Shown: piece by piece, positions 17,770-34,400 of the stretch
How positions within the stretch are numbered: position 1 is the stretch's first letter
Layout of the letters: the number at the start of each line of letters is the position of its first letter
Source of the DNA: Quadrisphaera sp. RL12-1S
GTDB taxonomy: Bacteria > Actinomycetota > Actinomycetes > Actinomycetales > Quadrisphaeraceae
Direction: 5' to 3'
NCBI RefSeq assembly: GCF_014270065.1
Contig: NZ_JACNME010000002.1
Location: 62,001-126,000 of the forward strand
DNA length: 64,000 nucleotides
The notes under the pieces: model-generated
Database searches by the model: none
Told to the model about the DNA's origin: nothing
Seen by the model: the letters and a program-made list of their open reading frames with translations, nothing else
Program-made: the position numbers and the translations under genes

Positions 17770-20493
17770 TCAGCGTGGTGGCTTGAAAGCGGAAATTATG
17801 GTCTCCGAGAGTGGCGTCTCAAGAAAGAGCCCTTGCGAAACAGCGTCCAAAGCGCTCCTGCGCTGTCGGGCAGCTTGAGCTTCGGCCTCGTCAGCCAAAG
17901 ACAAAGAGGCAATAATCTCATGAGCCACCGCCTCCGGGGGGCGGGGAAGAAGCATCTCGCTCAAAGTCGACCAATTGACCCGGGTACGTCCTATTCCTGT
18001 AGATCGAAGTAACATGTCGGCTCGTGCCTCAGAAGATCTCAGCATGGCCCAGAGCACATACGTGTGTATGTCTGAGGAACTTCGAATTAGAGTATACTCG
18101 CTAGTGACAATAGTGCCATCCAAGTGCTCCGGGACTATCCCAACCGCTCCGTGAATGGCATTGATGTGACTAATTGCAATATCGCCAGCCCTGACCCAGG
18201 TATACCTTCCTCGTGGCAAGTCGCCAATCGATACCGTTTCGGCCGCCTCGCAGAATCCGTCGTACGAGACGCGCAAATAAGTGACTTCATCAGTTCCGGC
18301 TTCATCGAAGTTGACCGGTCTTGCAGCCGCATCTGCGAGTGCCAACACATTCTCCACATAATCACCTAGGCGAATCCCAGGTAGGCCAGCTGCGGTCCAT
18401 CCAATCTCCCTATGCCGAAGTTGCGGCATTACTGCCTTCACGTCCATGCGTTCAGATATCGCGCTGGCTGGGACGACCCAATCCCGGTTCGCAAGGGCGC
18501 CTGTTTTGAATTTACGGAAGAGGTCGATCACCGAGGCTACCTCAGCGTCGGCGTTCTCTCTATTAACCGCATCAATAGGAAGAACGCGTTGGCGTGGCGA
18601 GTCATCGACACCCACTGACGAGCAGTAGTACATGAAGACGTCAGGCTGCTCCTCACTCTCTTCAGACTTCTTGCGAAGCACTAGGAGGGAAGTCTTGACG
18701 CGAGCTTGAGAGCGCTGGAATGCATCTCCGGGAAGCGAGATGACAGCTTCGATAATGAAATGTGAACGGAGCCATGAGCGAAGTCGAGAGTGGCTCGGGC
18801 CGCCTAAGATTCCATCGTCAACTACCGAGATCAGGCGACCCCGTGGAGCGAGTAGTTCGTAGTACCGTTCAAAGAAGAGATGCATCGATGAAACGGCCTG
18901 GATAGGTGCCCGCCCACCGCCTTCACTATTAAAAGCAAGTTCATAGCTATCCAGGAGTTCATTGTCCGACATCTGCTTGCGATTGTACTCTTTGGCAAAT
19001 GGGGGATTGGTTAGTGCAACGTCAGCAACGCCCGCGCGCGGTCCGCCAGTGTGCTCGTTCAAACTGTTGCTGACGAGCTGTTTAAAGGCGGCCTTCTCCT
19101 GCACCAACTCTACGTCATCGGTCTCTTGCCTACGAACGCTTTTATCCAAGGCGTCAAGTTGAAAAATCTTACTTCCGCCATCTCCGTGCAGATACATGTT
19201 AATACGGGCGATCCGAGCCAGAGCAGGATCTCGAGCGATATCGACTCCGATCAAGGATTCATTAGCAACTTTGCGCTTGAGCTGTTCCTTTTCGATGTTA
19301 CTTAGAGATGCATTTTGGTCAATCTTCTGCTGCAGGACCGAGAGTGCTTCGATCAAAAACCCCCCCGTTCCGCAGCATGCGTCGATTACCCGGTCCACCC
19401 TGTGCTGATCCGCATGAAGATCTGCGATCCCAGTGGCGAGTTTCACGATGCTGCGAGGCGTGAAGTACTGACCAAGGTCCTTGCCGCGCAAAGTTGAGTT
19501 CAGGAATGTTTCGAACATTCGGCCGTTCAAATCTTCGTCAATGCTATGGAGGTCGATGTGCTCGAGGCGGCCAGTGATGGCCTTTAGAGTTTCGGCTGAG
19601 AGGTTAATTCGCTCACTTGGTGCGAAGATGCGTCGTTTACTGTTGTTGGCAATCTCGAGCTCGAAGGCCTCTATACGCCCCTTGAAAAGAATCGCGTCGA
19701 GCGGGTTGGCGGTTTCTTGCTCTCGTGATTCGATCCACTGCCTCGAAAAATAGACTTCGCTAGCAGGCACTGATAGTGAGCCGTTGGCAAGCCTCCTGGC
19801 TGCGGGCGACGCTATGACCTGTCGGTCCGACCACAGTTTCAGGAAGATAACCTTAACGAACTCCATAAATGCAGCGGTATAGCTTAAGTTTTCACGCTTG
19901 TAGATTGTTCGATGAATCCAGGCAAAATGTGTATTTAGTTCCGCTACTGACAACTTCTGTAGCTGAAACGTCTCTGAGGGCTGGGCCTCAATGATGCCTC
20001 GCGTTCGACGCATGTTGTTCTTTGCTACAATTTCACGCAAGGCTAGATAGTTTGCATTGCCATCGGCGAAATCGTGCCAGGCCGTTGTGACCAGCGGAGT
20101 GTCACTGTCCCACCGATAAAGGCGGGATTCGACGCCATTGGTCAAAAGAAAGTAGTCGACTGTGGCGGCACCTGCACGCGCGGTCCTGTTGAATTCGAAG
20201 CAGTAGCTAGCTGCTTGACCGGTCCAATCGTCGATGCTTTCCTCGGTACCCTTAGCCTCGATAATCCATCGCAGAGTGCCGGATGGCGCTACTCCAAAGT
20301 CCGGGCGCCACCGTTCCTGGGATCTCCCCCGATTGATAGACAATTCTCTCATGGACATCTTGGGCTTGATCTCAGAATCTTCGTAGCCAAGGTCTTGAAG
20401 AAGGCGGGCCACAAAGAAAGTCTCGACTGTTGCCTCGTTCCCGAGGTCAGATAGGCGACCGAACTTATTGGAGGTCTGCTGCTCGCTTGGCAC
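17770..20493 (-). CDS. Single-chain restriction-modification protein (nuclease, N6-adenine methylase, specificity domain)
   Basis: 907 residues from GTG. The N terminus looks like a PD-(D/E)XK nuclease: PDF at 64-66 and EAK at 79-81 in RPDFGVAPSG...IIEAK. A helical region (about 180-360) with FTPRSIVKL leads to a class I methyltransferase: SAM motif DACCGTGGFLIEAL from 371 and catalytic NPPF at 496-499, typical of N6-adenine enzymes of the HsdM/type IIG kind. The last 220 residues resemble one HsdS target-recognition half, ending RTRVNWSTLSEMLLPRPP before a helix. All three activities in one chain suggest type IIG-like restriction-modification. Base composition and codon use are far AT-richer than all neighbours, a sign of recent transfer. 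Confidence 0.85.
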   Translation of the reverse strand: MPSEQQTSNKFGRLSDLGNEATVETFFVARLLQDLGYEDSEIKPKMSMRELSINRGRSQERWRPDFGVAPSGTLRWIIEAKGTEESIDDWTGQAASYCFEFNRTARAGAATVDYFLLTNGVESRLYRWDSDTPLVTTAWHDFADGNANYLALREIVAKNNMRRTRGIIEAQPSETFQLQKLSVAELNTHFAWIHRTIYKRENLSYTAAFMEFVKVIFLKLWSDRQVIASPAARRLANGSLSVPASEVYFSRQWIESREQETANPLDAILFKGRIEAFELEIANNSKRRIFAPSERINLSAETLKAITGRLEHIDLHSIDEDLNGRMFETFLNSTLRGKDLGQYFTPRSIVKLATGIADLHADQHRVDRVIDACCGTGGFLIEALSVLQQKIDQNASLSNIEKEQLKRKVANESLIGVDIARDPALARIARINMYLHGDGGSKIFQLDALDKSVRRQETDDVELVQEKAAFKQLVSNSLNEHTGGPRAGVADVALTNPPFAKEYNRKQMSDNELLDSYELAFNSEGGGRAPIQAVSSMHLFFERYYELLAPRGRLISVVDDGILGGPSHSRLRSWLRSHFIIEAVISLPGDAFQRSQARVKTSLLVLRKKSEESEEQPDVFMYYCSSVGVDDSPRQRVLPIDAVNRENADAEVASVIDLFRKFKTGALANRDWVVPASAISERMDVKAVMPQLRHREIGWTAAGLPGIRLGDYVENVLALADAAARPVNFDEAGTDEVTYLRVSYDGFCEAAETVSIGDLPRGRYTWVRAGDIAISHINAIHGAVGIVPEHLDGTIVTSEYTLIRSSSDIHTYVLWAMLRSSEARADMLLRSTGIGRTRVNWSTLSEMLLPRPPEAVAHEIIASLSLADEAEAQAARQRRSALDAVSQGLFLETPLSETIISAFKPPR

Positions 20494-23957: not shown

Positions 23958-24617
23958 GTGTCCCGACGCCGCCGCAAGAAGACGACCGCTTCTGATGTCC
24001 TCGGAGCGGCCGCGGTTTTGATGGTTGTCGCGGGCGCTGTCCTCAGCGTCATCTTCGCCTTCTTGTCGGCCGTGTGGGACAGCGCTGGGATCTTCAGATG
24101 GCCCATCATCTGCGTCTTGCTCGCCTTGATTGTCCTCGCACTCAGGCGAAGAAGTCGTAAGCGCCGTGCAGCTCGTGCGCTGGTGCAGGCCCGATATGAA
24201 CGCCAGATGCAGATGGACCAGGACTTTGGGTACACGAAAAGCTTGTCGCCGAAACAGTTTGAAGAGCAAGTTGCTCGTCTTCTGCGCCGCGACGGATGGT
24301 TCAACGCCGCTGTCGTCGGAGGCGCAAATGATCGGGGCGCCGATGTCATCGCAACTCGGAACGGCCACAAGATGGTGGTCCAGTGCAAGCGATACTTCGG
24401 ACACAAGGTCACAAGCCGGGAGATGCAGCAGTTCGTCGGAATGTGCTACGACGAGCATAGAGCCACCATTGCTGTCTTTGTCACCACCTCGTCCTTCACC
24501 AAGGAGGCGCGTGCTATCGCGACCAGCAGACGGGTCGTTCTGATCGAAGAGCGAGACTTCACACGGTGGCAGTCCTTTGGTGAGGGTGATTTCCTGAGGA
24601 TCGGGGCGACCAGCTGA
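23958..24617 (+). CDS. Membrane-anchored Mrr-type restriction endonuclease
   Basis: 219 residues from GTG. A basic N terminus (SRRRRKK) and two hydrophobic segments (about 12-38 and 47-63) precede a basic linker and a nuclease domain. The nuclease core matches Mrr/restriction endonuclease-like proteins: E102/E103 in KQFEEQVARLL, D129 in NDRGADVIA, and Q142-x-K144 in VVQCKRYFG. Mrr-family enzymes cut modified or foreign DNA; the membrane anchor would place this one at the site of DNA entry. It lies 80 bp after the helicase gene in the same direction. Base composition is somewhat AT-richer than average. Confidence 0.87.
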   Translation: MSRRRRKKTTASDVLGAAAVLMVVAGAVLSVIFAFLSAVWDSAGIFRWPIICVLLALIVLALRRRSRKRRAARALVQARYERQMQMDQDFGYTKSLSPKQFEEQVARLLRRDGWFNAAVVGGANDRGADVIATRNGHKMVVQCKRYFGHKVTSREMQQFVGMCYDEHRATIAVFVTTSSFTKEARAIATSRRVVLIEERDFTRWQSFGEGDFLRIGATS

Positions 24618-29315: not shown

Positions 29316-29969
29316 GTGCCCGGCCTCCCTAGCCTCCGGGGCATCATCGAACACCGGGTCTCAGCCCTGCCGCTGCCGGAGGCGCCCGAGCACCGGGCGC
29401 GCCGTCGTCTCCGGCGCGCGGGCGCCTTCGCCCTCGTCGCCCTGGGACTGGCCGGTGGGTACTTCGTGACGCTGCCCCTGGTGACCTTCGTGGTGTGGGT
29501 CACGGGGTCCTACCTGCTGTTCGGGGACAGGGGGTTGGAGCACGTGGCGCAGACGGTGCAGGCTCACGAGGAGCTGCCCGCCCCGGGGCCGCCGCCGACG
29601 GCGCCGGTGGCCAGGAGGGACGCCGAGGGGGCGGCAGAGGCAGCGCGGTACTTCGTCGCCTCCTACGAGTACGGGTACACCAGCGGTGACCCCGCCTGGA
29701 TCGAGGAGCTCTCCACCCCGCAGTGCGCCACCTGCGCCTCTGCGGTGAGGGCGATCGACCTGGTCGACCAGCGGGGTGGGCGCTTCCTGATGATGGACTT
29801 CGAGCCCACGGCCGTCACCGTCACCTCCTTCACCCCGGAGCGCGCCGCCGTCCACCTGTCGGTGGCGATCTCTGACGCCGCCATGTCCACCAGCGACGGG
29901 GGCATCGCCGAGCTCGGGGGTGGGAACGTCGAGAACGACGTCGTCCTCGTCTGGCAGGACGGCCACTAG
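29316..29969 (+). CDS. DUF6318-like single-pass membrane protein
   Basis: 217 residues from GTG. A basic N terminus is followed by hydrophobic residues about 35-68 as a membrane anchor. The outer domain contains EAARYFVASYEYGYTSGDP followed by LSTPQCATCASAV, the pattern of DUF6318-type domains (aromatic-rich helix, a GD turn and a C-x2-C pair). A paralogue with the same plan lies at 44033-44824. Function is unknown; both are probably surface-exposed. The start is uncertain, since several in-frame alternatives exist. Confidence 0.7.
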   Translation: MPGLPSLRGIIEHRVSALPLPEAPEHRARRRLRRAGAFALVALGLAGGYFVTLPLVTFVVWVTGSYLLFGDRGLEHVAQTVQAHEELPAPGPPPTAPVARRDAEGAAEAARYFVASYEYGYTSGDPAWIEELSTPQCATCASAVRAIDLVDQRGGRFLMMDFEPTAVTVTSFTPERAAVHLSVAISDAAMSTSDGGIAELGGGNVENDVVLVWQDGH

Positions 29970-30068
29970 CTGGTCGACAGCCTCGACGATGGGCTGTGGG
30001 CCCCCGGCCAGCACGCCTGACCGCGGTGCCTGACGCTGGTGTCGGGGGGCGCTGGCACGCTGGGCCGC

Positions 30069-30686
30069 GTGTCCAACAGCGCGGTCTCGACGGTCACGGT
30101 GTGGTCCACCGACCCGGCTGCTCTGGCGGCGGTGAAGGCGCACGCGGCGGCGTCCCCAGGTCGTGGCGGCAGCACCGCCGGCGGTCCTGGCACCCACCGC
30201 CTCCCGGGGTGGCTCGGCGGGCTGGGGAAGCGGCTCGACCGCTCGCGGGCCGCGACCGTCGAGCGTCCGTTCTCGCTGGAGGCCGTCGTGCCGACCGGCA
30301 TGGAGCTCGACGCGTGGGACCGCGACCGCGCCCTGGAGCTGTGGGGCACGAGCCTGCCAGAGAAGGACTCCTCGCTGGAGCACGAGAACGAGGACCGGCT
30401 GGTCTACGAGCTGGTCACCGCCTACTCCCAGCCCACCGCGGTCTTCCGGGCGCTCAGCGCCGCGCACCCGTCGGTGGTGCTGCACGCCGTGACCACCTGC
30501 GAGGGCGAGTTCGCCGCGGTCGGCTGGTACGTGCGCGGCGAGGCGGTGGACGAGCGGGAGGCGGAGCTCGACCTCACCGACGAGCAGTGGGAGGAGTGGG
30601 ACGGCGAGTGGGACCTGCCGGCCGACTGGTCCTTCGACGTCAAGAGGGCCCGGCAGCTGGCGACGGAGGGGCCGACCAGCGGCTGA
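30069..30686 (+). CDS. Api92-like hypothetical protein
   Basis: 205 residues from GTG 30069 (VSNSAVSTVTVWSTD); a start 30 bases upstream is possible. The central part, RALELWGTSLP, later LVYELVTAYSQPTAVFRALSAAHPS in adjoining pieces, then a strand ending in FAAVGWYVRGE, resembles the ferredoxin-like C-terminal domain of Api92/DUF1281-type proteins, found mostly in phages and mobile elements. Usual members start with a region of Cys and Asn that is not conserved here. Lies just before the PrsW operon but separated by about 130 bp, so it may be transcribed with it or not. Confidence 0.6.
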   Translation: MSNSAVSTVTVWSTDPAALAAVKAHAAASPGRGGSTAGGPGTHRLPGWLGGLGKRLDRSRAATVERPFSLEAVVPTGMELDAWDRDRALELWGTSLPEKDSSLEHENEDRLVYELVTAYSQPTAVFRALSAAHPSVVLHAVTTCEGEFAAVGWYVRGEAVDEREAELDLTDEQWEEWDGEWDLPADWSFDVKRARQLATEGPTSG

Positions 30687-30815
30687 CGGGTGGCGGGTCA
30701 TCGGCGGGTGGGTTCGGCTGGGCGAAGGACGCCGCTCAACTCAGCGGCGCAGCCCGTCGACAAGGACGCGGAGGGCGGAGCACCCGCGCCGCGTCCTGCC
30801 GCTGGGAGAGCACTC

Positions 30816-31880
30816 GTGACGAGCAACACCGACCCGGGCGCTGGGGTGACCGCGCACGTCGACACCGCCTTTGCGCACGACGCGGTCCTGGACAGCGCTG
30901 GATGCGCCGCCTGCGGGGCCGGACTCGTGTCCGCGGCCGCGTTCTGCGGTAGCTGCGGGCATCGCCGGGGTGCTCCCGTCAGCCCGGCGGAGACGGTCAT
31001 GTCGCCCTTGCCGACAGCACCTTCGGTCAAGGTGTCACTGACGTTGCAGCCGCTCATCGCCTGGGCGCGTGAGCCCGGCTTCTGGCGCGGCTGGGTGGGG
31101 CCGTTCGCGCTCTTCGCCGTCGCTCCGTTCGCCCTGCTGCAGGCATCGGGTGAGACGGAGTCGCGAGTGATCGCCACAGGCTTCGCGGTCTACTTCGCCC
31201 TGCTGTGGGGGCTGGTCCTGCACCGGGTCATCGCTCCCGAGCCGCAGGACCGGTGGCTGCTCGTGCGCATCAGCCTCTTCACGGCCTTCGTCGGAACCGC
31301 GCTGGCCATCGCGATCGAGGAGTGGGTCCTCTCGGACGCCCCGCAGCTGCCCGACTACGTCTTCGGCGTCGGGCTGCCGGAAGAGGCGGTCAAGGCGCTT
31401 CCCGTCTTGCTGTTCGTCTTCCTGAGCCGTCGGTCCTGGACCCCTCGCACGTTCATCTTCGCCGGGGTCGTCAGCGGCCTGACGTTCGGCGCTGTGGAGG
31501 CGATCAGCTACACGGGCCTCTACGAGCAGCTGTCCGACCTGGGCGCAGGCACCTATGGCGACATGACGGCTGCCACCATCTGGCGCCTGCTGTCGGGAGG
31601 TCTCTTCCACGGGTGCCTGGCCGGGGTGCTCGCGTACTTCATCGGGCTGGCGTACTGGTACCGCCGCTCGGCCGTGGTCCTCGTCGCCCTCGGTCTCGGT
31701 CTCGTCTCGGTGCTCCACGGCTTGTACGACGACCTGTCGGGTGGATGGCTCGGCACGGCGGTGGCGGGCTTCACGATCGTCGTCTTCGCCGCCTACGTCC
31801 GCATCGGGGACGAGATCGCGCTGCGTCTCGGAGAGCCCGACCAGCAGCGCCCCGCTGCACTGACCGGAGGCGCCCGGTGA
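30816..31880 (+). CDS. PrsW-family intramembrane metalloprotease with N-terminal zinc ribbon
   Basis: 354 residues from GTG 30816, with GGGAGAG five bases upstream. Residues 30-47 carry a zinc ribbon (C30, C33, C44, C47). From residue 88 on there are about eight membrane segments with PrsW signatures: PEEAVKALP (E189, E190), LTFGAVEAISY (E228), GGLFHGCLAG (H265), and HGLYDD (H301, D305), in the correct order and all inside or next to membrane helices. PrsW proteases of other bacteria cut membrane-bound anti-sigma factors. First gene of a four-gene operon with overlapping starts; the other three are membrane or nuclease-like, so one of them may be a substrate. Confidence 0.85.
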   Translation: MTSNTDPGAGVTAHVDTAFAHDAVLDSAGCAACGAGLVSAAAFCGSCGHRRGAPVSPAETVMSPLPTAPSVKVSLTLQPLIAWAREPGFWRGWVGPFALFAVAPFALLQASGETESRVIATGFAVYFALLWGLVLHRVIAPEPQDRWLLVRISLFTAFVGTALAIAIEEWVLSDAPQLPDYVFGVGLPEEAVKALPVLLFVFLSRRSWTPRTFIFAGVVSGLTFGAVEAISYTGLYEQLSDLGAGTYGDMTAATIWRLLSGGLFHGCLAGVLAYFIGLAYWYRRSAVVLVALGLGLVSVLHGLYDDLSGGWLGTAVAGFTIVVFAAYVRIGDEIALRLGEPDQQRPAALTGGAR

Positions 31881-32557
31881 GCCGGGGTCCCCTCGCACTC
31901 GTGCGCTGCCCCGCGTGTCGAGCGGCGGTGCCTGGCGACGACCTGTGCGCGCGATGTGCGGCGCCGCTGGCAGCGAGCAGCACAGGCGTTCAGGTGCCTG
32001 TAGCGGCCGACGACGGCGCCCGCACCTCAGCGGCGACGCTGCGCCAGCTGCTCGAGCTGCCCTCGCCGAGGGGGTCGGGGCTGCCGGACGACTCCAGTGG
32101 TCCCCCTTCGACGGGCCACGCCGGATCCGCTGTCCACGGACACGGTCCCACCACCACCCGGCGAGCTGTCGCGGCTGGGTCGGGCGCGGTCGGCGTCGGG
32201 CTCCTCTGCGCGGTGGTCGCCGGGTACCTCGTCCTCGGGGTCAGCTCCAGCCACACGATCACCGGCGCTGTGCACCTGTCGGCGACTGGCGCGGACGCTC
32301 TGGGCACCACCTGCACGGCAGCCTCGTCCGGGTTGGGTGAAGGTTCCGACGTCGTCATCACCAGCGGTGACGGCACCGTGCTGGGATCCACCCACCTCGG
32401 CGCAGGGACCTATGACGGGTCTCGCTGCGTGCTTCCGTTCACCCTCAGCGATGTCGAGGACGCCGGCGACTACTTCATCACCCTCGATGGCGGGGACCCT
32501 GTGTCGTTCAACCGCGAGGACCTCGTTCGCGACGACTGGCGGGTGGACGTCTCATGA
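31877..32557 (+). CDS. Zinc-ribbon single-pass membrane protein
   Basis: 226 residues from GTG 31877, which overlaps the protease stop (GTGA). A cytoplasmic zinc ribbon (C11, C14, C24, C27) and a Ser/Pro-rich linker lead to one membrane segment (about 97-122, VGVGLLCAVVAGYLVLGV) and an outside domain of about 100 residues with GTTCTAASSGLGEGSDVVI and DGSRCVLPFTLSDVEDAG, two cysteines that may pair. The cytoplasmic ribbon plus exported beta-rich domain suggest a membrane sensor or an anti-sigma-like adaptor, a plausible client for the protease upstream. No named family recognised. The stop overlaps the next ATG. Confidence 0.75.
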   Translation: MSRGPLALVRCPACRAAVPGDDLCARCAAPLAASSTGVQVPVAADDGARTSAATLRQLLELPSPRGSGLPDDSSGPPSTGHAGSAVHGHGPTTTRRAVAAGSGAVGVGLLCAVVAGYLVLGVSSSHTITGAVHLSATGADALGTTCTAASSGLGEGSDVVITSGDGTVLGSTHLGAGTYDGSRCVLPFTLSDVEDAGDYFITLDGGDPVSFNREDLVRDDWRVDVS

Positions 32558-33537
32558 GCCTGAGGCGGCTCATCACGTCCCGGCGCACCCACGTCGTCGT
32601 CCTGCTGCTCGCTGGAGCGGCAGCGGTCGTGGCGCTGCCGGTGCGGTCCACCTCGTGCGGGAGTCCCCTGCAGACCTGGACGCGTCAGCAGGCGGTCACC
32701 GCCGCGTTCGTGTCCCCGCAATCCGACTCTGATGTCACCCGTCGGGACACCGCTGCCGTGGCCGCCGCGCACAAGGCCGTCTCTGAGGCCGACAGCGCCG
32801 AGCACCGGGCCGAGGAGCTGCAGCAGGCCGCCGACCAGAAGTCGGATGAGGCCTCCCAAGCGCAGACCGACCTGTACTCCAGTCCCGGCTACTACGGGAG
32901 CGACACCTCCTATGAGCTGTCGATGGCGGAGTCGAAGGTCAGCTCCGCCGAGTACGACGTCGAGTACTACGAGAGCGACGTCCGCTCGCTGACCTCGTCA
33001 CTGGACGAGTCACGCGGCACCACCATGGAGTCCTACTACTCCTCCCAGCTCGCCACCGCGCAGAGCCAGCTGGCGGACGCCAAGTCGGAGCTGTCCCAGG
33101 CGCAGGCCGGACTGAAGTCGGCGAAGGCCGCGGACACCCAGTCGCAGGCCTCAGCCGAGGCGGCCCAGACCCGCGTTGATGACGCGCTGACTGCCGCCAC
33201 GACCGCTCAGCAGGAGGCGCAGACCGCGGCCACCGACGCCGAGGGCCAGGTGGAAAGGGCTCGCCAGCAGTTGCAGAGCGCGACCGCCACTCAGGAGCGG
33301 CATGTCGCGGAGAGCGCGGGAGAGGTAGCGGCTGCCTACACGCGCTGGTTCGACGCGAAGGTCGACGTGTCCGCCGCCAACGCCGTGCTGCGGGACTGCC
33401 GTGACGACAGCCTCCTGTCCGGGGCAGCGTCGACGGTCATGGCTGCGGGTGCGGCGGGCCTGGTGCTCGTGCCGGTGGTCGGCGGGATCCGAAACCGTCG
33501 GAAGGGTCGGCGCGACGGTCGAGAGGCCACATCGTGA
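32554..33537 (+). CDS. Coiled-coil protein with N- and C-terminal membrane segments
   Basis: 327 residues from ATG 32554, overlapping the previous stop. A hydrophobic segment at about 13-30 (HVVVLLLAGAAAVVALP) and another at about 288-312 (STVMAAGAAGLVLVPVVGG) enclose some 240 residues of Ala/Gln/Ser-rich heptad-like sequence (AAHKAVSEADSAEHRAEELQ and repeated LATAQSQLADAKSELSQAQ). A Tyr/Ser patch (YSSPGYYGSDTSYE) interrupts the coil near 110. The topology suggests a large external coiled-coil loop, perhaps a spacer or oligomerising rod. No family recognised. Third gene of the PrsW operon; next start overlaps its stop. Confidence 0.75.
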   Translation: MSLRRLITSRRTHVVVLLLAGAAAVVALPVRSTSCGSPLQTWTRQQAVTAAFVSPQSDSDVTRRDTAAVAAAHKAVSEADSAEHRAEELQQAADQKSDEASQAQTDLYSSPGYYGSDTSYELSMAESKVSSAEYDVEYYESDVRSLTSSLDESRGTTMESYYSSQLATAQSQLADAKSELSQAQAGLKSAKAADTQSQASAEAAQTRVDDALTAATTAQQEAQTAATDAEGQVERARQQLQSATATQERHVAESAGEVAAAYTRWFDAKVDVSAANAVLRDCRDDSLLSGAASTVMAAGAAGLVLVPVVGGIRNRRKGRRDGREATS

Positions 33538-34400
33538 CCCCGGGGGGCCGTGCCGCGCAGCGAGCCGAGGCGATCGAGACGCAGCTGGCGCGCAAGCGCG
33601 AGCTGCTCGCGCGCACGCAGCACGACATCACCTCCCTGGAGGCGCAGCTGCACCAGTGGACAGCCGGCGCGGAGGGGGAGCAGCGCACCGCCGCCGCGCT
33701 CGAGGTGCTCGAAGCCGACGGGTGGCAGCTCCTGCACGACGTCCACTGGCCCGGCCGTCCCAAGGCGAACCTCGACCACGTCGCCGTCGGCCCGGGCGGG
33801 GTGGTGGTGGTCGACGCCAAGCGCTGGTCCGGTGACATCACCGTGACCGGGGCGGAGCTGCGCCTCGGCAGCTGGCGCAAGACCCGCGACTGCGAGAACG
33901 CCGCGCGCATGGCCTCCGACGTCGCGTCGCTGCTCGCGCCCCAGCACCGCACGGCCGTCGCGTCGGTGCTCTGCCTCGTCGGCAAGACACTCCCGCCGAC
34001 CGCGGTCGAGGCGGGCGTGGTGGCCGTCGGTGACGCGCACCTCGCGGACCACCTGCGCTCCCTGCCCCGCCGGTTCGACGACGACGACGTCAGCGCCGTC
34101 ACCGCCCAGCTCCGCGACCTGCTCGCCGGTGCGACCTCACCGCCGGTGCTCACGGCGTCGGCGTGGGAGGAGCGCACGGCGCCCGTGTCCGTGCCGTCGC
34201 TCGCGGTGCTCGGGTCGGTCGCCGCACCGACGCGCCGCTCGACGCGCTCGGAGCGTGCCGCGTCGGGACGGGCGGTACAGGACCGGCGCGTCCGTCGTCG
34301 TCAGGCGTCCTCGAAGCTCGAGTACGTCGTGGTGCGCCTCGGTCTGCTGGGAGCTCTCGTCGGCGGCTACTACCTCTGGGTCGGCTCCCTCGGGCGGTAG
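33534..34400 (+). CDS. NERD nuclease-related domain protein with C-terminal anchor
   Basis: 288 residues from GTG 33534, which overlaps the coiled-coil stop (GTGA). A short coiled coil (about 8-42) precedes a NERD domain: E47/E49 in AGAEGEQRTAAAL, D81-H82 in ANLDHVAVGP, and D94-x-K96 in VVVDAKRWSG, a complete PD-(D/E)XK-like set. The last 25 residues (VVVRLGLLGALVGGYYLWVG) form a membrane tail anchor. NERD proteins are thought to bind or cut nucleic acids and are often linked to membrane signalling proteins. Last gene of the operon; convergent with sucrose phosphorylase with three bases between stops. Confidence 0.85.
   Translation: MTPGGRAAQRAEAIETQLARKRELLARTQHDITSLEAQLHQWTAGAEGEQRTAAALEVLEADGWQLLHDVHWPGRPKANLDHVAVGPGGVVVVDAKRWSGDITVTGAELRLGSWRKTRDCENAARMASDVASLLAPQHRTAVASVLCLVGKTLPPTAVEAGVVAVGDAHLADHLRSLPRRFDDDDVSAVTAQLRDLLAGATSPPVLTASAWEERTAPVSVPSLAVLGSVAAPTRRSTRSERAASGRAVQDRRVRRRQASSKLEYVVVRLGLLGALVGGYYLWVGSLGR

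What the first reader, a model, noticed from the sequence alone, without database searches (positions are those of the whole stretch)
30816..34400. Four-gene overlapping operon: PrsW protease, zinc-ribbon membrane protein, coiled-coil membrane protein, NERD nuclease-like protein
Every start overlaps the previous stop, so the four proteins are probably made together and work as one complex. Seen: complete PrsW motifs, complete NERD catalytic set with a tail anchor, and two membrane proteins with no known family. Known: PrsW proteases cut anti-sigma factors; NERD proteins are nucleic-acid related. Inferred: a membrane-bound signal or defence module in which the protease releases a zinc-ribbon or nuclease domain. 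I know of no described system with this set.
Basis: partly seen in the sequence, partly recalled or inferred. Interest (0 to 1): 0.75.

Follow-up and report, generated by a model that had tools for sequence, protein, structure and literature searches.

The report
PrsW protease cassette beside older gene
In one GC-rich bacterium, three genes for a membrane protease and two membrane proteins sit just in front of an older nuclease-like gene; the four look like one operon, but in two sister species the nuclease-like gene stands there without the other three, so this is more likely a local arrangement than a conserved four-part machine.

Summary
The four ORFs are real, with three 4-nt overlaps. Gene 1 is a PrsW-family protein (67 bits; EExxK, His, HxxxD, eight hydrophobic segments) with an N-terminal zinc-ribbon-like motif. 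Gene 2 is zinc-ribbon/TM/beta ectodomain. Gene 3 is a two-TM coiled-coil protein with no relative found. Gene 4 is a tail-anchored NERD protein.

The conserved four-part system fails its own test. In both congeners found with the upstream neighbour (G001, G002), that gene is followed after 44 nt by the NERD gene, without genes 1-3. Of 69 genomes of the order with both PrsW and NERD matches, only the window's has them within 10 kb. The NERD start reads GTGA in both congeners, which largely explains the gene-3/gene-4 overlap.

Best reading: a lineage-specific three-gene signalling cassette, probably inserted before a resident NERD gene, in which a signalling-type PrsW acts on a co-encoded membrane protein. 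Direction, substrate and signal are inferred. Zinc-ribbon PrsW is already described (PMC3482391); the gene-2 ectodomain recurs in 19 of 296 genomes of the class. Ordinary parts, unusual combination, low to moderate interest.

The parts
30816..31880 (+). Gene 1: PrsW-family intramembrane protease, 354 aa, with N-terminal CxxC..CxxC zinc-ribbon-like motif and eight hydrophobic segments
   Evidence: Pfam PrsW 67.4 bits; motifs and hydrophobic segments; 49% identical over 249 residues to a stand-alone zinc-ribbon PrsW in G016
31877..32557 (+). Gene 2: N-terminal zinc-ribbon-like motif (C11, C14, C24, C27), one TM (104-122), C-terminal beta-rich ectodomain with two cysteines (C146, C184)
   Evidence: ectodomain relatives in 19 of 296 genomes of the class, own included
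32554..33537 (+). Gene 3: TM (12-30), long helical coiled-coil region (about 59-270), TM (294-312); C35 and C282 lie near the outer ends of the two TMs
   Evidence: no relative (one spurious hit)
33534..34400 (+). Gene 4: NERD-domain protein with C-terminal tail anchor; present at this place in two congeners
   Evidence: Pfam NERD 59 bits; orthologues in G002 (75.2%) and G001 (69.7%)
30039..30686 (+). Left neighbour ('up2'), no Pfam match; in G001 and G002 it is followed directly by the NERD gene
30687..33533 (.). Segment between up2 stop and NERD start: 2847 nt here, 44 nt in G002 and G001; holds genes 1-3 and a 129-nt leader

Best explanation
Genes 1-3 are a lineage-specific cassette, present in the window's genome and absent from the two congeners that share the up2-NERD locus. 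It most likely inserted between up2 and a resident, tail-anchored NERD gene, so that the NERD gene is now read from the end of the cassette. Proposed working (inferred): gene 2 (zinc ribbon inside, beta domain outside) and gene 3 (coiled coil outside) sense or scaffold at the cell envelope; the signalling-type PrsW cuts gene 2, or less likely gene 3, in or near the membrane, which frees the zinc ribbon inside or sheds the outer domain. The NERD protein is co-expressed by position and is not an obligate partner. Shown: the ORFs, the domains, the absence of genes 1-3 in G001 and G002, and the lack of PrsW-NERD linkage in the genomes sampled. Inferred: direction of the event, substrate, signal and output. 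My confidence in the anatomy and lineage-specific arrangement is about 0.85, in insertion as against loss about 0.65, and in the protease-substrate mechanism about 0.4.
For: Locus comparison: the up2 to NERD gap is 44 nt in G002 and G001 against 2847 nt here. tblastn of genes 1-3 at E 1e-5 finds nothing in the eight fetched loci L042-L049, which hold the up2-NERD locus of G002 and G001. Gene 2 was in 1 of 79 and gene 3 in 1 of 79 genomes of the relatives set, the window's own in both; gene 1 in 2 of 79, the second being a solitary zinc-ribbon PrsW. GC3 of genes 1-3 (0.885, 0.815, 0.875) is below the mean of 44 other predicted window genes (0.907), but 5 to 11 of the 44 are as low or lower. [quoted passage not shown] A directly coupled single-pass membrane gene occurs beside 4 of 30 other PrsW genes against 4 of 193 other genes (one-sided Fisher p 0.013).
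Against: Branching of the three congeners is open (sucrose-phosphorylase-like protein: G001-G002 87.0%, G000-G002 84.4%, G000-G001 83.6%; next neighbour: G000-G002 84.7%, G002-G001 82.3%, G000-G001 80.9%). G001 and G002 also share a DUF6518 gene between NERD and the sucrose-phosphorylase-like gene (82% identical) that is absent from the whole window. So they may be sisters, and a single loss of genes 1-3 in their ancestor is possible. None of the repeats shown (20 of 40 direct families, 25 of 92 inverted pairs) joins the two junctions. Three of the four coupled pairs have look-alike partners, so the linkage test rests on about two independent cases. The simple scan found no promoter or terminator. 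No sigma or anti-sigma family was matched in the four genes or in the window neighbours scanned. The gene-2 ectodomain occurs elsewhere without a PrsW-like ORF in the fetched flanks, which weakens it as a dedicated substrate.
Confidence: 0.47

Rival explanations
1. Four-protein membrane complex: the protease releases a zinc ribbon or the NERD domain as one signal or defence system.
For: Overlapping frames suggest coupled translation in this genome; all four proteins have predicted membrane segments.
Against: NERD orthologues sit in G001 and G002 without genes 1-3; PrsW and NERD lie within 10 kb in 1 of 69 genomes that have both; the G001 NERD orthologue lacks the GAEGE stretch and the lysine of DAK; no PADLOC match for genes 1, 2 and 4.
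Confidence: 0.1
2. Ancestral four-gene operon, with genes 1-3 lost in the G001/G002 lineage.
For: The three genomes are near a trifurcation; G001 and G002 share a DUF6518 gene that the window lacks; no insertion scar was seen.
Against: Genes 2 and 3 were found in none of the other 78 genomes of the relatives set; gene 1 has one relative there, alone and elsewhere.
Confidence: 0.23
3. The cassette makes a membrane assembly in which PrsW does not cut its neighbours, and genes 2 and 3 are a cell-envelope binding pair (for example glycan binding) that merely share a transcript.
For: The best fold match of the gene-2 model is a family 41 carbohydrate-binding module (E 0.011, not significant); the ectodomain occurs apart from PrsW.
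Against: The PrsW motif residues are all present, which suggests selection for catalysis.
Confidence: 0.2

Closest known systems
Zinc-ribbon-fused PrsW 'signalling peptidases' (Biol Direct 2012, PMC3482391, passages read)
   Same: PrsW domain with zinc-ribbon-type motif, about eight TM and complete motifs
   Different: Here it is coupled to two further membrane genes; the zinc ribbon scores below Pfam cut-offs
Bacillus subtilis PrsW-RsiW (site-1 cleavage of an anti-sigma factor; PMC4602095, passages read)
   Same: Same protease family and active-site motifs
   Different: No sigma or anti-sigma family was matched in the four genes or the neighbours scanned
SmdA of Staphylococcus aureus, a membrane NERD protein (PMC9040797, passages read)
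   Same: NERD domain held at the membrane by a single TM
   Different: The SmdA anchor is N-terminal, here C-terminal; the paper says SmdA lacks several of the most conserved NERD residues, while this one has GAEGE, D81 and DAK
Unnamed actinobacterial ectodomain proteins (for example L052, L053, L054, L056)
   Same: N-terminal zinc-ribbon-like CxxC motif, one TM, related outer domain
   Different: L052 and L053, the two of these scanned, have a DUF732 match before the outer domain; no PrsW-like ORF in the flanks fetched for the ectodomain matches other than the window's own

Membership tests
PrsW-protease (PF13367) | Score above the Pfam curated cut-off | tested here: met
   67.4 bits against 23.5
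PrsW-protease (PF13367) | EExxK, conserved His in a later TM, HxxxD (as given in PMC4602095) | tested here: met
   EEAVK 189, H265, HGLYD 301
PrsW-protease (PF13367) | About eight TM helices (PMC3482391) | tested here: met
   8 hydrophobic segments by a simple hydropathy scan
PrsW-protease (PF13367) | Proteolytic activity | not testable with these tools
   needs an experiment
PrsW-dependent polymorphic toxin system | Toxin domain fused C-terminal to PrsW (PMC3482391) | tested here: not met
   PrsW match 146-326 of 354 residues; no domain after it
PrsW/anti-sigma regulated proteolysis | Sigma and anti-sigma factor encoded with the protease | tested here: not met
   No such family in the four genes or in the neighbours scanned; a distant substrate is not excluded
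NERD (PF08378) | Score above the Pfam curated cut-off | tested here: met
   59.0 bits against 22.1
NERD (PF08378) | PD-(D/E)xK-like residues (motif recalled) | tested here: met
   GAEGE 45-49, D81, DAK 94-96
Known anti-phage defence system | Match to a PADLOC protein model specific to the system | tested here: not met
   Genes 1, 2, 4 none; gene 3 only JetC, LmuB and PDC-S06 models, at best 20.8 bits
Conserved four-gene PrsW/ZnR/coiled-coil/NERD system | Co-occurrence in relatives | tested here: not met

The most novel reading that the evidence does not exclude
A compact three-gene membrane-signalling cassette (zinc-ribbon PrsW, zinc-ribbon/ectodomain protein, coiled-coil hairpin) that lands in front of resident genes and puts them under its own coupled expression; here it has captured a tail-anchored NERD protein, and its PrsW may release that NERD protein from the membrane.
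Probability: 0.1. Interest if true: 0.6.

Novelty: new variant of a known kind. Interest (0 to 1): 0.27.

Why it matters
If the protease-substrate pairing is right, it would give a small model for PrsW signalling outside sigma-factor control. It also shows that tight gene overlap can arise when a neighbouring start codon supplies the stop (GTGA), so overlap alone should not be read as proof of a conserved complex.

Tried and rejected
Phage or plasmid origin of the cassette: gene 1 in phages none, in plasmids one distant Deinococcus PrsW at 36%; gene 2 in phages none, in plasmids one weak Tsukamurella hit (E 0.04); gene 3 in plasmids and phages none; viral contigs none for genes 1-3. A genome-collection scan with the PrsW pair gave three relatives at 27-29%; I saw other N-termini and no such neighbours in the ORFs listed (by eye). 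NERD as a core member: rejected by synteny. Terminal repeats of a mobile element: none evident among the repeats shown. Gene-2 fold: no significant match. Solved structures by sequence: none for genes 1 and 4. G004 was considered as a third congener with the same locus; its NERD is more like a second NERD type and its match is split over two frames, so I do not count it. Literature: 'PrsW' with 'NERD domain' gave 0 papers; 'PrsW' with 'zinc ribbon' gave 1, an ECOD classification paper not opened; the titles and abstract starts listed show no paper describing this set. The library holds open-licence papers only. After a check of the report I lowered the best explanation from 0.50 to 0.47 and raised the loss rival from 0.20 to 0.23, because of the DUF6518 gene shared by G001 and G002.
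Full report
What is there. The first gene does not overlap its predecessor: 129 nt separate it from an unknown gene at 30039-30686. The codon pattern supports all four as genes. Gene 1 passes the Pfam PrsW cut-off (67.4 against 23.5 bits) and gene 4 the NERD cut-off (59.0 against 22.1); gene 2 has only a sub-threshold zinc-ribbon match, and gene 3 only sub-threshold matches in Pfam and NCBIfam and coiled-coil-type matches in PADLOC. Gene 1 has EEAVK, FGAVE, FHG and HGLYD, eight hydrophobic segments and an N-terminal CxxC..CxxC; gene 2 has CxxC..CxxC, one TM and two cysteines in the outer domain; gene 3 has two TMs with one cysteine near each; gene 4 ends in a TM.

Structures. Single-sequence models gave a beta-rich outer domain for gene 2 (block pLDDT 70-87 over residues 121-210, the rest lower) and long helices for gene 3 (59-109, 116-152, 159-270; ends low). 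A PDB fold search with the gene-2 model gave nothing below E 0.001; the top row was a CBM41 module at 0.011. The orientation (zinc ribbon inside, outer domain outside) is inferred from the sequence.

Relatives. In the relatives set of 79 genomes (own included) gene 3 occurs in 1, gene 2 in 1, gene 1 in 2 and the NERD protein in 35. In 394 genomes of the class, gene 3 gave one further hit of 53 residues with two stops inside, which I treat as spurious, and gene 1 again only G016. Sensitivity is limited: only the best 5 first-look candidates of each genome were scored, up to 27. The G016 homologue is 49% identical over 249 residues and also has the zinc-ribbon motif; genes 2 and 3 have no tblastn match in the 13 kb around it. 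The gene-2 ectodomain is weakly related to proteins of other genera (best E 1.5e-7); 4 of the 6 loci I read out show the order zinc-ribbon motif, TM, outer domain. A five-row alignment of it (A2) finds 19 of 296 genomes of the class; 5 of these 19, the window's own included, supplied the rows, so 14 are new, some near the E 0.001 limit. A motif search for PrsW-like ORFs in the 20 loci flagged only the window's own locus; these loci reach only about 1.5 kb to each side.

The locus in congeners. In G002 up2 ends and the NERD gene starts 44 nt later; in G001 the layout and spacing are the same; genes 1-3 are absent from the fetched regions. Of 15 genomes searched, up2 occurs in 3: own, G001 and G002. 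The wider locus is variable: both congeners have a DUF6518 gene between NERD and the sucrose-phosphorylase-like gene, which the window lacks, and the window has a DUF6318-like gene to the left of up2 that has no match in L042-L049. Both congeners start NERD with GTGA, so an ORF arriving in the right frame would end on that TGA; the gene-3/gene-4 overlap therefore says little about shared evolution. I prefer insertion because genes 2 and 3 are unknown in the relatives searched, but protein identities leave the branching of the three species open, and the shared DUF6518 gene could mean that G001 and G002 are sisters. GC3 of genes 1-3 is slightly low (5, 10 and 11 of 44 other genes are as low or lower). 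No junction repeats were seen among those shown.

Linkage in the order. PrsW is found in 91 of 119 and NERD in 83 of 119 genomes of the order; 69 have both, and 26 have a pair on one contig. Only the window's genome has the two within 10 kb; the next pair, in G054, is about 17 kb apart. Fragmented assemblies could hide pairs. I fetched 34 regions holding 36 of the 129 PrsW matches listed: the low-scoring ones, except two (G471, G460) and the window's own gene, plus four high-scoring ones of the genus. My gene picker missed 4 of the 36, and 30 passed the filters used for counting. Of these 30, 4 have a same-strand single-pass gene directly coupled, against 4 of 193 other genes in these and the eight earlier loci (one-sided Fisher p 0.013). 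Three of the four partners look alike by eye, so this is weak support for a protease plus membrane-partner theme. In these 34 regions tblastn finds gene-1 relatives in L094 (G016) and weakly in L072, and none of genes 2-4.

Interpretation. PrsW is known for site-1 cleavage of RsiW and, in forms fused with zinc ribbons and other signalling domains, is predicted to be a signalling peptidase (PMC3482391 and PMC4602095, passages read). The best-supported function for genes 1-3 is such a signalling unit with its membrane partners encoded beside it. Which partner is cut, and what the zinc ribbon does after release, is inference. For the NERD protein, the one experimentally studied membrane NERD protein I saw is SmdA, a cell-morphology factor; its authors wrote in 2022 that to their knowledge the function of NERD in bacteria had not been studied before (PMC9040797, passages read).

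Verdict. Observation confirmed; the four-part complex is not supported; the three-gene cassette is real, unusual in combination and made of known kinds of parts.

Noticed in passing
window 17770-20493 (-) and 23958-24617 (+): Low-GC3 genes (0.57 and 0.71): an N6 DNA methylase-like protein and an Mrr-type restriction endonuclease domain protein; they suggest foreign, restriction-related DNA about 6-13 kb upstream.
   Followed up: partly
L042 9118-9795 (G002) and L043 5360-6046 (G001): A DUF6518 gene between NERD and the sucrose-phosphorylase-like gene in both congeners, absent from the window, where these two genes lie 3 nt apart.
   Followed up: partly
window 29316-29969 (+): DUF6318-like gene between the hydrolase and up2 in the window; in G001 the hydrolase and up2 are divergent neighbours without it, so up2 is flanked by variable DNA on both sides.
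   Followed up: partly
L043 6064-6780 and 9228-10157 (G001): The G001 NERD orthologue lacks the GAEGE stretch and the lysine of DAK, while a second NERD gene with VVVDTKNW lies about 3 kb away.
   Followed up: partly
L046 7207-7841 (G004): A NERD match split over two reading frames, so a damaged copy or a sequencing error.
   Followed up: no
L074, L076, L084 and L072: PrsW genes preceded, with overlapping or touching ends, by a single-pass protein; the three of these partners scanned (L072, L074, L084) have no Pfam match; those of L074, L076 and L084 look alike.
   Followed up: partly
alignment A2; L050-L056, L102-L121: An outer domain with a conserved cysteine, matched in 19 of 296 genomes of the class; in the three members scanned no Pfam family above its cut-off covers it.
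   Followed up: partly
L064 4980-6172 (Deinococcus plasmid): PrsW overlapping a short protein that looks single-pass by eye, with a sub-threshold DUF4177 match.
   Followed up: partly
L008, L009, L010: Distant PrsW proteins whose N-termini look like GYF-type domains (name recalled, not scanned) instead of a zinc ribbon.
   Followed up: no
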